Part shown: positions 57,683 to 62,937 of the stretch, one piece after another | Layout of the letters: each line of letters begins with the position of its first letter | Position numbering within the stretch: position 1 is the first letter of the stretch | Source of the DNA: Phototrophicus methaneseepsis | GTDB taxonomy: Bacteria; Chloroflexota; Anaerolineae; Aggregatilineales; Phototrophicaceae | Assembly (NCBI RefSeq): GCF_015500095.1 | Contig: NZ_CP062983.1 | Coordinates: 124,001-188,000, forward strand | DNA: 64,000 nucleotides | Direction: 5' to 3' | Position numbers and translations under genes: made by a program | The notes under the pieces: model-generated | Database searches by the model: none | Told to the model about the DNA's origin: nothing | What the model saw: the letters and a program-made list of their open reading frames with translations, nothing else

Positions 57683-58759
57683 ATGATACAGGAATTTACG
57701 CTCGACCTCACAGAAGATGTCTGTTACAAGGCGGTCGCCAATGGGGACCCTGCCTACGACGGGCAATTCGTCGTGGCTGTTAAGACAACAGGCATCTACT
57801 GCCGCCCATCCTGCCCAGCACGCACCCCTAAGCGCGAGAACGTCGAGTTCTTCCCGCTGCCGGCTGCTGCTGAATGCAACGGTTATCGTCCTTGCAAACG
57901 CTGCAATCCGCGCCAGCATGATATGCAGGATGAGCAGGCCCGTCGCGTGCAAATTATCTGCGATTATATTACCGAGCATCTCGATGCGGATTTATCGTTG
58001 GAGGCACTCGCCCAACAGGTCCATCTCAGCCCGTACTACTTCCAGCGGACATTTAAGCAGATGATGGGCATTACGCCGCGCCAATACGCTGAAGCCAAAC
58101 GCATGGACTGCCTGAAAGAGCATTTGCGTGATGGCCTGAGCGTGACAGATGCCGTGTATGAAGTCGGCTTTGGGGCCAGCAGCCGCATGTACGAGCGTGC
58201 TGATGCGCATCTGGGCATGACGCCGACGACCTATCGCAACAAGGGCGAGGATATGACCATCGTCTATACGATTGTCAATTGCCCATTGGGGCGGATGTTG
58301 ATCGCAGCGACAGAACGTGGCATTTGTAAGATTGATATGCGCCACAATGATGAAGAACTCGTCGCACGTTTGATTGAAGAATTCCCGAAAGCCACCATCG
58401 CCAATGATGATGACGCGATGTGTGATTACGCGCACCAAATCGTGGCCCATCTAAACGGTTGGCAGCCCCATCTCGATTTACCCATCGACATCCGGGTTAC
58501 CGCCTTCCAGCAGCGGGTGCTCTCTGAATTACAACGCATCCCTTACGGCGAAACCCGCTCTTACAAGCAAATCGCGGAAGCCATCGGCAACCCGCGCGCT
58601 GCCCGTGCTGTTGGCAACGCCTGCAACGCCAACCCGGTCCCGATCCTCATCCCATGCCATCGCGTCATCCACAGCGATGGGGGCATCACGGGTTATGCCT
58701 TCGGTCCAGAGGTCAAGAAGCAAATCCTCGATACTGAGCGAGAGAATAAGCCGGAATAG
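57683..58759 (+). CDS. ada: Bifunctional Ada: methyl-phosphotriester/O6-methylguanine DNA methyltransferase and activator
   Basis: All parts of Ada are present in 358 residues. The N-terminal zinc domain has Cys40, Cys44, Cys71 and Cys74 (equivalent to E. coli C38/C42/C69/C72). An AraC helix-turn-helix follows (LEALAQQVHLSPYYFQRTFKQMMG). The C-terminal methyltransferase domain carries PILIPCHRVIHSDG with the suicide acceptor Cys325. Methylation of Cys40 turns the protein into an activator of the adaptive response to alkylation. GGAGGC precedes the ATG. An alkA or alkB gene is not next to it. Confidence 0.96.
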   Translation: MIQEFTLDLTEDVCYKAVANGDPAYDGQFVVAVKTTGIYCRPSCPARTPKRENVEFFPLPAAAECNGYRPCKRCNPRQHDMQDEQARRVQIICDYITEHLDADLSLEALAQQVHLSPYYFQRTFKQMMGITPRQYAEAKRMDCLKEHLRDGLSVTDAVYEVGFGASSRMYERADAHLGMTPTTYRNKGEDMTIVYTIVNCPLGRMLIAATERGICKIDMRHNDEELVARLIEEFPKATIANDDDAMCDYAHQIVAHLNGWQPHLDLPIDIRVTAFQQRVLSELQRIPYGETRSYKQIAEAIGNPRAARAVGNACNANPVPILIPCHRVIHSDGGITGYAFGPEVKKQILDTERENKPE

Positions 58760-58880: not shown

Positions 58881-59507
58881 TTAGGTCAGGCGGTTGTAGT
58901 ATTCAACCACGAGCTGAATATCAACCTGGGCCTGAATTTCGCCTTCTTCCGGGATGCGCAGGAAGGTCGCGCTGAATTCGTTCTTATTCACCGAAAGATA
59001 CGGCGGATAAGCAGCGATCTGGTCAACCCATTCAATAACATGGACGTTCTTCTTCATCTTGTCGCTCAGGGAGATGACATCCCCTGGCTTCACCTGATAA
59101 GAAGGCAGGTCCAGGCGCTGGCCGTTAACCAACACATGACCATGTACAACCAGTTGGCGAGAAGCCCAGATGGTTGCGCCAAGGCCGGCTTTATAAACCA
59201 GATTATCCAGGCGGCGTTCCAGAATGCCGAGCAGGTTCACACCGGTTGCGCCGGTCATCTGCACAGCTTTTTTGTAGTAGTTACGCATCTGGCGTTCACG
59301 TACATTGTAGATGTACGCCAGCTTCTGCTTTTCGTCGAGCTGCTGACCGTAGTCGCTGCGACGACCACCACGGAAGGATTTTTCCTTACCGTGATCACCA
59401 GGCGGATAGGCGCGCTTGTCTAGGATGCGCGAGTACTTCGGGCGCGGCACCAGCAACGTGCCGAAGCGTCGCTGCTGCTTTGCTTTAGGACCATGATACG
59501 ATGCCAT
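58881..59507 (-). CDS. rpsD: 30S ribosomal protein S4
   Basis: The 208-residue product matches S4 throughout: MASYHGPKAKQQRRFGTLL, RAYPPGDHG, SDYGQQLDEKQKLAYIYNVRERQMRNYYKKA, RRLDNLVYKAGLGATIWASRQLVVHGHVLVNGQ in the S4 RNA-binding domain, and VVEYYNR at the end. It lacks the zinc-binding cysteines, so it is the C-minus form. It binds 16S rRNA early in 30S assembly. It is not beside rpsM/rpsK/rpoA, so here it is a standalone gene that may be autoregulated. GAGG upstream supports the ATG at 59507; the frame extends to 59567. Confidence 0.97.
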   Translation of the reverse strand: MASYHGPKAKQQRRFGTLLVPRPKYSRILDKRAYPPGDHGKEKSFRGGRRSDYGQQLDEKQKLAYIYNVRERQMRNYYKKAVQMTGATGVNLLGILERRLDNLVYKAGLGATIWASRQLVVHGHVLVNGQRLDLPSYQVKPGDVISLSDKMKKNVHVIEWVDQIAAYPPYLSVNKNEFSATFLRIPEEGEIQAQVDIQLVVEYYNRLT

Positions 59508-59727
59508 TTGTTGTCTTACCTCATTTATATCGTTGCACCAGGCCAGCCGCTGCCCAGTACGATTCATTCAAATGAATGTGACGCGAGAACGGAACGTATC
59601 TATTCTATGGAGCTGTGCGACATTTTCCAGGGGGAGTTTTGCAGATCAAGCTGCTGAAAAGGCTCATTCAACGTGAATCAGCCCTATGCACAGCCCCACA
59701 GCAGCCTATGAAAACGTATGCGGTAGC

Positions 59728-61281
59728 TCAGCCGATCTGCGGCGGGCGCAGTTCGTGTAGATCATCCAGGGAGATATGCCCATCGCGTAAGGCGCGCAGT
59801 GCGGCGTTGGTACGGTCCCGGACTTTCAACTTGGTCATAATGCGAGCCATGATCTCGATCATTTCAGTCATGGGCACGTTGAGCTTCGCGCCGATTTGCT
59901 CGTCACTGTAGCCTGCGGCCACGTGCAGCAAAACAGCTCGCTCCGTTTCAGTGAGTTCATTATCCGCATCATTGAGCATGCCGCTAACGATCTTACCGGC
60001 AATGCCACGTCCGAGGACAATCTCATCGTCCATCACTTTGCGGATGGCATCCATCAGCTTGCTCTCATCGGTGCTCTTGAGCAAATACCCATGCGCACCA
60101 GCCCGCAGAGCACGCATGATGTAGATGTCATCATCGCGGCCCGTCAGCACCAGCACTTTAACGTCTGGGGCTTGCTCACGGATGCTTGGCAGAATATCCA
60201 GGCCAGATTTCCCCGGCATATTCAGGTCCAGCAGCAGCACATCAGGCTGTAACTCCAGCGTGCGCAGCAAAGCCTGATCGCCATCGCTGGCCTCTGCCAG
60301 GACGAGGAATTCTTCATTGGCTTCCAGGTAACTCGCCAGGGCACGCCGCAGCAGCACATGATCATCCGCCATGACCACCTTAATCATCCGCCGGGGACGC
60401 GCATTTGGGTCATTCAGGCGGCCCGTCTGGCGTGTCGCTGAAGACTGATCAATTTCAGCATCACGCCCGGTGGTAAAGCCACCCACGGGCAGCGTCGCCT
60501 CTAATGCCTCTGCCAGGAGGTCCGCTGATTGGAAGCGCCGATCTTTGCGCTTTTCCAGCGTTTTAAGGATGACGTGTTCCAGGGAAGGCGTGATATCCGG
60601 TTTGATGAGGCGCGGCGGTGGCGGTGGCTGCTGAACGTGCTGCAGCAACAGGGCTGTGATGTCATCGGCATTAAATGGGAGCTGCCCAGTTAGCATCTCG
60701 TAAAGCACGATGCCGAGCGAATAAATATCTGTGCGGCGGTCCAATTCGTGGCCCTGGGCTTGCTCCGGCGAGATATACGCTGGCGTGCCGATGACCATCC
60801 CCGGAGCCGTTACGCGTTTGGCTTCTCGCGGTAACGCCAACCCCAGGTCCATAATCTTGATCTGCCCCTGGGGTGTCACTTTGATATTCGCAGGCTTAAT
60901 ATCTCGATGGATGATGTCGTTCTCGTGGGCATAATGCAGCGCCCGCGCGATCTGCGAACCCAGCGCGACGACTAATTCCGGCGCGGAAGGCACATAGGAC
61001 GCGAGCGAATCGCCATCAATATATTCGACGACGAGATAATCACGGTCGCTATCCTTGCCCATATCGTACAAGGCCATGATATTGGGATGATTGAGTTGGG
61101 CGGCTGCGTTGGCTTCCTGGAAGAAGCGAACACGGGTTGATTCTCGCACGTGGGGCAGCAAGACTTTAATCGCCACATCACGCCCAAGCAGGGAATCACG
61201 CCCCAAATAGACGGTCGATGTCGCGCCCTCACCGATATGTGCCAGAATTTCGTAGCGTTGGTTGAGCTTCTTGCCGATCAT
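59728..61281 (-). CDS. Ser/Thr protein kinase fused to a NarL-type response regulator
   Basis: The 517-residue protein combines two signalling systems. Residues 1-257 form a eukaryotic-like kinase: GEGATSTVY, Lys39, HRDIKPAN (Asp127, Asn132), and DLG at Asp145 in place of DFG. A ~40-residue linker leads to a receiver domain (299-420) with DD at 306-307, phospho-acceptor Asp352 in LLLDLNMPG, Thr380 and Lys402, all conserved. A LuxR/NarL helix-turn-helix ends the chain (445-500: LTETERAVLLHVAAGYSDEQIGAKL), though its recognition part (PMTEMIEIMARIMTKLKV) is not the usual TV-x-x-H. The kinase could directly control its own DNA-binding domain. No transmembrane segment. Confidence 0.93.
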   Translation of the reverse strand: MIGKKLNQRYEILAHIGEGATSTVYLGRDSLLGRDVAIKVLLPHVRESTRVRFFQEANAAAQLNHPNIMALYDMGKDSDRDYLVVEYIDGDSLASYVPSAPELVVALGSQIARALHYAHENDIIHRDIKPANIKVTPQGQIKIMDLGLALPREAKRVTAPGMVIGTPAYISPEQAQGHELDRRTDIYSLGIVLYEMLTGQLPFNADDITALLLQHVQQPPPPPRLIKPDITPSLEHVILKTLEKRKDRRFQSADLLAEALEATLPVGGFTTGRDAEIDQSSATRQTGRLNDPNARPRRMIKVVMADDHVLLRRALASYLEANEEFLVLAEASDGDQALLRTLELQPDVLLLDLNMPGKSGLDILPSIREQAPDVKVLVLTGRDDDIYIMRALRAGAHGYLLKSTDESKLMDAIRKVMDDEIVLGRGIAGKIVSGMLNDADNELTETERAVLLHVAAGYSDEQIGAKLNVPMTEMIEIMARIMTKLKVRDRTNAALRALRDGHISLDDLHELRPPQIG

Positions 61282-61525: not shown

Positions 61526-61906
61526 ATGTCTAAAAATGATCGGTCTGATACAGGCCATACGCTCATTAAATTAGCCTTCTCTTTCCTCACATGGAGCTCG
61601 TTGGTCCTCGTCGCGATTGTGTTCAATACTGGCGATGGGCTCATCATCCCGATCCTGCTGTTTATGGGGTTCTTCCTCGTGCTGATTAATGGCTTCATCT
61701 GGGATTGGGGACAGGGGATGCAACATCGGCAGCAGCGGCGAGAAGCAGAAGAAAAGCGTAAGCGTGATATGCTTGATTCCGTCCTACGCAATATGAGCAA
61801 TGAACAATTGATGGCCCTACGTACCCGCTTGAGCGACCCTGATTTTGATGACGATCTCAAGCAAATGCTCGGGGATGATGGCGAATACATCATTGATCAA
61901 CTTTAA
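61526..61906 (+). CDS. Small membrane protein, KRDMLDS-tail family, copy 1
   Basis: The 126-residue protein has two membrane helices (LIKLAFSFLTWSSLVLVAIVF and LIIPILLFMGFFLVLINGFIW). A cytoplasmic tail at residues ~75-122 contains EEKRKRDMLDSVLRNMSNEQ and LMALRTRLSDPDFDDDL with GDDGEYI. Two more genes downstream encode the same layout, so this is a tandem family. No known domain was recognised; the tail resembles short SHOCT-like or helical interaction motifs. There is no clear ribosome-binding site before the ATG, which may indicate leaderless translation. Confidence 0.72.
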   Translation: MSKNDRSDTGHTLIKLAFSFLTWSSLVLVAIVFNTGDGLIIPILLFMGFFLVLINGFIWDWGQGMQHRQQRREAEEKRKRDMLDSVLRNMSNEQLMALRTRLSDPDFDDDLKQMLGDDGEYIIDQL

Positions 61907-61999
61907 CGGTCACTATTTCAATTGAGACAAGGGAAACCACCAGCAAGCGTTTTCGTGGCCGCCCGGCACACGAAATGAGTTTATTCATCGGGGAGCACC

Positions 62000-62377
62000 A
62001 TGATTGTACGTTCAATTACGACATTTCTGATGTGGCTAAGTTATCTGACGATATTGGTCATGATGCATGATGAGCTTGGCAACGCGATTATCGCGCTGGC
62101 AGGCGTGCTGATGATTCCCCTGGCGATTGCAAGTGCCGCGATGTGGGATAGTTTTAAAGAAAAAGAACCCGAGAAAAAAGCGACTCAGGAAGTTGATGAA
62201 GTCTCGTTTAACCGGGAAAAGCGCAAACGCGATATGCTGGATTCTATCCTGAGAGATTTAAGCGACGAGCAGCTTGCAGCCCTCAAAGAGCGCCTGAGTG
62301 AGCCTGACTTCGAGGATGATTTACAGGGTATGATCGGGGATGATGGCGAGCTCATCATGACTCGACGCTCAAACTAG
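62000..62377 (+). CDS. Small membrane protein, KRDMLDS-tail family, copy 2
   Basis: The 125-residue protein has the same plan as its neighbours: two N-terminal membrane helices (TTFLMWLSYLTILVMM, NAIIALAGVLMIPLAIASAAMW), a charged linker, then REKRKRDMLDSILRDLSDEQ and LAALKERLSEPDFEDDL, ending in IGDDGELI. The tail is more conserved than the membrane part, implying a cytoplasmic interaction partner. It is 94 nt from copy 1 and 75 nt from copy 3, so co-transcription is plausible. Confidence 0.72.
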   Translation: MIVRSITTFLMWLSYLTILVMMHDELGNAIIALAGVLMIPLAIASAAMWDSFKEKEPEKKATQEVDEVSFNREKRKRDMLDSILRDLSDEQLAALKERLSEPDFEDDLQGMIGDDGELIMTRRSN

Positions 62378-62451
62378 GCGTTATGGCGATATCACAGATG
62401 TGATGTGTCATAAGGCTCGCCCAAAATGCGTTTTGTGTTATGAGATAAACA

Positions 62452-62937
62452 ATGGTTGAAAAGCAAAAGATAAGATCGAACAGACGCCGCTTACGCCGGG
62501 AACTCAGGCAGCAACGCCATGAGCTCAGGCGCAGACGCCGTATGATACGACGAAAAGAAAGTTACAGCACAATGGATACACTCGCGAAATCAATTGCAAC
62601 AGTCATCATGTGGGCTGGCATGTTAGGGGTTATTTTCCTCGCCATTCCCAATATGGGTGGGCTGGCGGTTTTACTGGCGCTCGTGCTCATGATCCCCTTG
62701 CTCGCGATAATGGCCTTTATGTGGGTTGTGAACTCGCCATTCGCTTATAACCACTCTCAACGAGGGAAGCAGCAAGAAGAAAACCAGGAAAAGCGCAAAC
62801 GCGATATGCTGGATTCCGTCCTGAGAGAACTGAGCGATGAGCAGCTCGCAGCCCTCAAATACCGCTTAAGCGAGCCGGATTTTGAAGAACGCCTGGAATA
62901 TATGATTGGCGATGATGGCGAACTCATTCAGCGCTGA
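62452..62937 (+). CDS. Small membrane protein, KRDMLDS-tail family, copy 3 with Arg-rich N-terminus
   Basis: This copy adds a strongly basic 35-residue N-terminus (RRRLRRELRQQRHELRRRRR) before the two membrane helices (KSIATVIMWAGMLGVIFLAIP and LAVLLALVLMIPLLAIMAFMW). The conserved tail follows: QEKRKRDMLDSVLRELSDEQ, LAALKYRLSEPDFEERL, then IGDDGELI. An internal ATG at 62572 would remove the basic part, leaving a protein like copies 1 and 2; which start is used cannot be told. The DNA in the tail is nearly identical to copy 2, indicating recent duplication. Confidence 0.72.
   Translation: MVEKQKIRSNRRRLRRELRQQRHELRRRRRMIRRKESYSTMDTLAKSIATVIMWAGMLGVIFLAIPNMGGLAVLLALVLMIPLLAIMAFMWVVNSPFAYNHSQRGKQQEENQEKRKRDMLDSVLRELSDEQLAALKYRLSEPDFEERLEYMIGDDGELIQR

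What the first reader, a model, noticed from the sequence alone, without database searches (positions are those of the whole stretch)
59728..61281. Single-chain Ser/Thr kinase-receiver-LuxR regulator
An intact eukaryotic-like kinase is joined to an intact receiver (Asp352, Thr380, Lys402) and a NarL-type DNA-binding domain. It could merge Ser/Thr and His-Asp signalling, with the kinase phosphorylating its own regulator half. The DLG motif and altered recognition helix hint at divergence.
Basis: partly seen in the sequence, partly recalled or inferred. Interest (0 to 1): 0.75.

Follow-up and report, generated by a model that had tools for sequence, protein, structure and literature searches.

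The report
Ser/Thr kinase fused to response regulator
A bacterial protein joins an intact Ser/Thr kinase to an intact two-component receiver and a DNA-binding-like tail that has lost its usual DNA-contact residues, so it probably converts a two-component signal into Ser/Thr phosphorylation rather than acting as an ordinary gene switch.

Summary
In detail: one 517-residue ORF on the minus strand (61281..59728) encodes a PknB-like kinase, a receiver and a NarL/LuxR-type C-terminal domain. It is not a frameshift artefact: 39 of 61 genomes of the order (own included) carry the whole fusion, and 6 more a part. Kinase catalytic residues and the receiver's acid pair, Asp and Lys are invariant in all 41 aligned proteins. 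The genome has the length printed for Phototrophicus methaneseepsis ZRK33.

The new point is the C-terminal domain. It keeps its predicted fold and is under purifying selection, but its recognition helix has lost the residues typical of NarL regulators and varies more than between paralogues. Best reading: a receiver-gated Ser/Thr kinase whose 'DNA-binding' domain is now a dimer or docking module. The same domain order occurs in at least three other proteins, one directly behind a histidine kinase on a Chlorohelix plasmid. Function is inferred, not shown.

The parts
59728..61281 (-). whole gene, 517 aa: Ser/Thr kinase + linker + receiver + NarL/LuxR-like domain
   Evidence: ORF; Pfam; 39 full-length family members
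60511..61254 (-). PknB-like kinase domain, residues 10-257; K39, E56, H125-R-D127, N132, D145, G147, T158, T166 invariant in 41 of 41
   Evidence: aligned to PknB/Stk1; fold match to PknB
60388..60498 (-). hypervariable, Ser/Thr-rich linker, residues 262-298 (19-55 aa across 41 proteins)
   Evidence: (pLDDT < 50 at 268-296)
60040..60378 (-). receiver domain, residues 302-414; D306, D307, D352, K402 invariant in 41 of 41, T380 is T in 40 and S in 1
59794..59958 (-). NarL/LuxR (GerE)-like helical domain, residues 442-496; predicted fold kept, typical DNA-contact residues lost
59827..59874 (-). former recognition helix, residues 470-485 (PMTEMIEIMARIMTKL), without the T-V-K-x-H pattern
59731..59793 (-). 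C-terminal stretch (GxIxLEDLH-type) conserved inside the family

Best explanation
A receiver-gated Ser/Thr kinase. SHOWN here by sequence: an intact PknB-type kinase and an intact receiver in one chain, joined by a fast-changing linker predicted to be flexible; a NarL-type C-terminal domain that keeps its predicted fold but not the typical DNA-contact residues. INFERRED: an unknown histidine kinase (none lies beside the window gene) or a small phosphodonor phosphorylates D352. The receiver and C-terminal domain then pair up as NarL/VraR/DosR-type regulators do, bringing two kinase domains together so that they phosphorylate each other on the activation loop (T158, aligned with the first Thr of PknB's V-T-Q-T) and switch on. 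The output is Ser/Thr phosphorylation of other proteins, not direct transcription. The former HTH acts as a dimer or docking module.
For: Kinase and receiver active-site residues invariant. The recognition helix is 35% identical on average within the family although the receivers are 60% identical; in 16 unfused orthologous NarL regulators it is 84% against 67%, and among 36 mixed paralogues 46% against 42%. Helix charge is negative on average, 0 of 39 have K/R at 475, 33 of 39 are acidic at 473 and/or 476. The domain is nevertheless kept: dN/dS 0-0.28 in the 9 of 11 pairs where it could be computed, block pLDDT 87-94 over residues 441-500. T158 is T in 39/39 and aligns with the PknB activation loop. 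L32, which I take to be PknB L33 (mutated in solved entries titled L33D/L33E; its role in the dimer interface is recalled), is L in 39/39, but also in 60 of 76 other kinases. Variable linker length suits proximity rather than a rigid interface. In Ca. Chlorohelix a separately assembled fusion sits directly behind a HisKA_3 histidine kinase, as its closest unfused relative does.
Against: No biochemical evidence. No histidine kinase among the window neighbours scanned, and no neighbour is shared by the whole family, so the phosphodonor is unknown. A changed recognition helix could mean new DNA specificity rather than loss. The AlphaFold model (pTM 0.56) gives no confident contact between the halves, and a second model of the regulator half could not be made. 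L094 and L095 keep canonical recognition helices, so joining a kinase to a receiver need not go with loss of DNA binding.
Confidence: 0.5

Rival explanations
1. It remains a transcription factor: the receiver-HTH half binds DNA of unusual sequence (or with a partner), and the attached kinase tunes it by phosphorylating it in cis, as Stk1 and PknH do in trans to VraR and DosR.
For: GerE still scores above the Pfam cut-off in the window protein and is detected in 25 of 25 scanned members at E <= 0.01; predicted fold kept; VraR is the closest solved regulator and is phosphorylated by a PknB-type kinase on T106, T119, T175, T178 (PMC4601284 passages); S/T at 314 in 30 of 39 and at 403 in 34 of 39.
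Against: DNA-facing Thr, basic and His/Tyr residues lost and helix more variable than between paralogues. Of the four VraR acceptor sites only the equivalent of T106 (S403) is usually Ser/Thr; the T178 equivalent (473) is acidic in 19 of 39 and T in 3.
Confidence: 0.27
2. The two halves work separately: a constitutive PknB-like kinase carries a receiver-HTH tail that only localises it or takes up phosphate (a phosphate sink).
For: Fast-evolving linker predicted with low confidence; no gene-neighbour partner common to the family.
Against: Receiver phospho-site residues invariant over the family, and proteins of the same domain order occur in other lineages.
Confidence: 0.15
3. Assembly or annotation artefact joining two genes.
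For: None found.
Against: 39 full-length copies in 39 genomes of the order.
Confidence: 0.01

Closest known systems
PknB/Stk1-type Hanks kinases
   Same: Kinase domain 35-41% identical to M. tuberculosis PknA/PknB and S. aureus Stk1 structures over about 270 columns; catalytic residues and activation-loop Thr
   Different: No PASTA domain in the Pfam scan; the C-terminal half is a response regulator; middle residue of DFG is L in 22 of 39
VraR / NarL / DesR response regulators
   Same: Receiver plus HTH in the same order; the five solved sequences at E <= 1e-22 are three VraR, NarL and DesR
   Different: Fused behind a kinase; typical recognition-helix residues lost; conserved C-terminal stretch
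Trans-acting crosstalk pairs: Stk1-VraR, PknH-DosR, StkP-ComE
   Same: Ser/Thr kinase and response regulator meeting (PMC4601284 passages; PMC6010298 abstract and passages)
   Different: There two separate proteins and a DNA-binding output; here one chain, and the two VraR acceptor Thr of the DNA-binding domain are not conserved
M. tuberculosis Ser/Thr kinase with a MalT-like C-terminal domain (PknK; name recalled)
   Same: Kinase fused to a transcription-regulator-like half (PMC1262709 passage)
   Different: MalT-like, not receiver-NarL; that no phospho-Asp site is involved is recalled
Ca. Chlorohelix allophototropha WP_341472197.1 and Rhodococcus koreensis WP_241031924.1
   Same: Same domain order kinase-receiver-GerE, annotated as 'protein kinase'
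   Different: Chlorohelix: appears separately assembled, canonical HTH, histidine kinase just upstream. Rhodococcus: weak receiver (40.8 bits) and GerE (27.9 bits) scores, HATPase_c protein just downstream

Membership tests
Hanks-type Ser/Thr kinase (PknB group) | catalytic Lys, Glu, HRD, Asn, DxG, activation-loop Thr | tested here: met
   41 of 41
Hanks-type Ser/Thr kinase (PknB group) | kinase activity on Ser/Thr | not testable with these tools
   needs an enzyme assay
Response regulator receiver domain | acid pair, phospho-Asp, Thr/Ser, Lys | tested here: met
   D306, D307, D352, K402 41/41; 380 T40 S1
NarL/FixJ DNA-binding response regulator | GerE fold | tested here: met
   Pfam GerE in 25 of 25 scanned; four helices predicted; a separate model and fold search of this half could not be made
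NarL/FixJ DNA-binding response regulator | recognition-helix residues (T-V-K/R-x-H/Y) | tested here: not met
   T473 3/39, K/R475 0/39, H/Y477 6/39, against 16/16, 16/16, 15/16 in unfused orthologues and 37/37, 21/37, 36/37 in other NarL rows; that these residues contact DNA is recalled
NarL/FixJ DNA-binding response regulator | cognate histidine kinase beside the gene | tested here: not met
   scanned window neighbours hold none. Elsewhere in the family a PAS histidine kinase lies divergently next to the L108 copy and a frame of the same cluster next to L031. Orphan regulators are common, so this weighs little
Stk1-VraR-type cis phosphorylation substrate | Thr acceptors of VraR conserved in receiver and HTH | tested here: not met
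   of four VraR sites only 403 is usually S/T (34/39); 473 acidic in 19/39
PASTA-type PknB/StkP kinase | PASTA repeats after the kinase | tested here: not met
   none in the Pfam scan

The most novel reading that the evidence does not exclude
A family of receiver-gated Ser/Thr kinases in one order of Chloroflexota turns His-Asp phosphorelay input into Ser/Thr phosphorylation inside one protein. It began as a DNA-binding regulator whose HTH was later remodelled into a kinase-pairing module, and the same fusion has been invented several times in bacteria.
Probability: 0.4. Interest if true: 0.75.

Novelty: new variant of a known kind. Interest (0 to 1): 0.55.

Why it matters
The crosstalk between Ser/Thr kinases and response regulators that I found in print works between separate proteins. 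A conserved single-chain fusion with both active sites intact makes the link testable with one purified protein. The contrast between the order-wide family (recognition helix remodelled) and the Chlorohelix fusion (canonical helix kept, histidine kinase beside it) gives a natural comparison between a kinase-output and a DNA-output version of the same architecture.

Tried and rejected
Frameshift or artefact: rejected. DLG as a sign of inactivity: rejected. A gene neighbourhood common to the whole family: not found. There is local sharing: the three f3 loci share neighbours, so do the three f4 loci, and the window shares the small-protein array with L045, L111 and L025 and rpsD with L045. An FtsK-like gene on the same strand lies next to the fusion in 5 of 38 family loci (L107, L116 and L097 with Pfam FtsK domains; L020 and L032 by partial matches at the locus end), but about half of the 38 loci hold only about 1.5 kb or less of flank on each side, and in the window's genome the two FtsK_gamma matches lie elsewhere, the nearer about 134 kb away. 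Of neighbours outside the window I Pfam-scanned 11 proteins from 9 family or family-like loci (not counting L179): two were histidine kinases (before L095; divergent beside L108).

One shared origin of all kinase-receiver-HTH fusions: not favoured, but the tests are uneven. In the first regulator tree (80 rows, without the unfused relatives of L095) holding L095 with the family was not rejected (p-AU 0.804, likelihood even higher), nor was L094 (p-AU 0.349). After adding 16 unfused relatives and dropping three long-branch rows (L130, L133, L087), L095 sat among those relatives (17 rows, support 100) and the family placement gave p-AU 0.041. L094 was not retested. In the kinase tree L094 groups with the family (support 91, not starred). 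The kinase-tree AU tests did not finish and were not resumed. The 16 relatives and L176 have no kinase in the regulator's frame (frames of 216-406 aa); beside one of them, L188, a kinase-like frame lies separately.

Phage collection: 0 records with 80% of the query in one place. Literature: searches. None of the titles and abstract starts listed describes this architecture, but only part of the hits was listed (20 of 47, 10 of 112), only open-licence papers are held, and I read passages, not whole texts. PMC1796606, which holds the three Pfam names once each, was not opened. A review of regulator output domains was not held.

Rows dropped: of 17 same-genome NarL-like places fetched, 15 aligned at the BLAST cut-off (L131 and L132 dropped). 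The 'mix' set has 37 rows including L094 and two copies of one G062 place (L159/L161); identities used 90%-non-redundant subsets (32 of 39, 16 of 16, 36 of 37). The six partial matches (G028, G005, G034, G021, G053, G024) were not in the 41-row alignment. The structure model and the Pfam scan used 25 of the 41 proteins. The Mann-Whitney values treat related sequences as independent and are not used.

Full report
WHAT IS THERE. The ORF lies on the minus strand, 61281 to 59728, 517 aa, ATG start. Pfam finds Pkinase (10-257), Response_reg (302-414) and GerE (442-496). The window belongs to a 5,631,885-base single-contig genome; the same length is printed for Phototrophicus methaneseepsis ZRK33, CP051151 (passage of PMC8941918), so I take that to be the organism. 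Of the 93 matches in this genome one place covers both halves.

IS IT REAL. In 61 genomes of the order (own included), 45 match at E <= 1e-90: 39 over the whole length and 6 in part, 4 of these ending at a contig end by their coordinates. By family code: f1 29 of 37, f3 4/4, f4 4/4, f7 4/4, f8 4/4, but f2 0/5, f5 0/1, f6 0/2. The 16 without a match were searched again at E <= 1e-58 and gave kinase-only matches in 6 and none in 10. In a sample of the class 13 of 249 matched at 1e-80: 12 in this order and one outside, L094. In a sample of the phylum 4 of 301 matched at 1e-70: two in the window's family (own genome and G015), one kinase-only (L096) and one full-length, L095.

ACTIVE SITES. In 41 full-length proteins (39 of the family, L094, L095) the kinase residues K39, E56, HRD, N132, D145, G147, T158, G165, T166 and the receiver residues D306, D307, D352, K402 are invariant; 380 is T in 40 and S in 1. 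The middle of DLG is L22/F15/M2 in the family, against F in 75 of 76 other kinases compared. T158 aligns with the first Thr of the PknB V-T-Q-T activation-loop motif; that this is a PknB autophosphorylation site is recalled.

THE C-TERMINAL DOMAIN. AlphaFold with 25 sequences gives mean pLDDT 83.7, pTM 0.56, block pLDDT 87-94 over residues 441-500 with four helices, and under 50 at 268-296. Against 15 same-genome NarL regulators the recognition-helix charge differs (-0.69 in 39 family members, +2.0 in the 15). Against 16 unfused orthologues from the phylum and 37 mixed NarL rows the contrast holds: helix identity 0.352 with receiver identity 0.595 (family), 0.844 with 0.669 (unfused set), 0.456 with 0.419 (mixed). 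T473 is kept in 3/39, K/R475 in 0/39, H/Y477 in 6/39; acidic residues stand at 473 and/or 476 in 33/39. In NarL the aligned stretch reads T-V-K-V-H-V-K-H-M; which of these contact DNA is recalled. The domain is not decaying: dN/dS is 0 to 0.28 in 9 of 11 pairs (two saturated), against 0.06 to 1.33 for the linker in 9 of 11.

CIS-PHOSPHORYLATION. VraR is phosphorylated by Stk1 on T106, T119, T175 and T178, which lowers DNA binding (PMC4601284 passages). By the alignment these fall at S403, V416, P470 and E473 of the window protein. Of these only 403 is usually Ser/Thr (34/39); 473 is acidic in 19/39. Position 314 is S/T in 30/39.

NEIGHBOURS. The window gene is followed by rpsD and faced by an array of small membrane-type proteins. 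No neighbour is common to the family. An FtsK-like gene stands next to the fusion on the same strand in 5 of 38 other family loci, from families f1 and f7, and a PAS histidine kinase is divergent next to it in L108, with a frame of the same cluster next to L031. In the window's genome the FtsK_gamma matches lie elsewhere. The FtsK link is a lead to cell division, no more.

SAME ARCHITECTURE ELSEWHERE. L095 is WP_341472197.1 on a plasmid of Ca. Chlorohelix allophototropha. Its kinase half is 58-61% identical to kinases of its own genome and order (L200, L198) and its regulator half 55-69% identical to 16 unfused regulators. It lies 45 bases behind a histidine kinase with HisKA_3 and HATPase_c; the closest unfused relative, L179, also directly follows a HisKA_3 histidine kinase. 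L094's regulator half is 68% identical to unfused L176. A Rhodococcus koreensis plasmid carries a fourth case, WP_241031924.1, with a HATPase_c protein 44 bases downstream. I read these as repeated fusions. Chlorohelix is the strong case; L094 is weaker, because its kinase half groups with the family (support 91) and the one likelihood test made did not reject a shared regulator half. The Rhodococcus case was not placed in a tree.

MECHANISM. Shown: intact kinase and receiver in one chain, typical DNA-contact residues lost, domain retained. Inferred: Asp phosphorylation pairs the C-terminal halves and lets the kinases activate each other; output by Ser/Thr phosphorylation. Against: no partner kinase beside the gene, no predicted interface, no experiment.

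VERDICT. A new variant built of known modules, conserved and testable, not a new kind of system.

Noticed in passing
window 61526-62937 (+): Three tandem small membrane-type proteins sharing a C-terminal KRDMLDSxLRxxSxEQLxAL...GDDGE stretch, divergent from the kinase gene; matches in 4 of 41 genomes (own, six in sister G001, weak ones in G006 and G015); two of the three have no Pfam match.
   Followed up: partly
window 58881-59567 (-): Ribosomal protein S4 (rpsD), directly downstream of the kinase gene on the same strand; also downstream in sister locus L045.
   Followed up: partly
L107, L116, L097, L020, L032: FtsK-like DNA translocase gene on the same strand next to the kinase-receiver gene in 5 of 38 family loci.
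   Followed up: partly
window 57683-58759 (+): Ada-type protein (Ada_Zn_binding, AraC HTH, methyltransferase domains).
   Followed up: no
L201 1804-5925: 1373-aa histidine kinase with WD40-like propeller repeats (PD40) directly before the Chlorohelix kinase-receiver protein.
   Followed up: partly
L188: An unfused relative of the Chlorohelix regulator half has a separate kinase-like frame in the same short locus, a possible unfused pair.
   Followed up: no
family alignment, residue 208: I208 in 39/39 family members where 58 of 76 other kinases have P.
   Followed up: no
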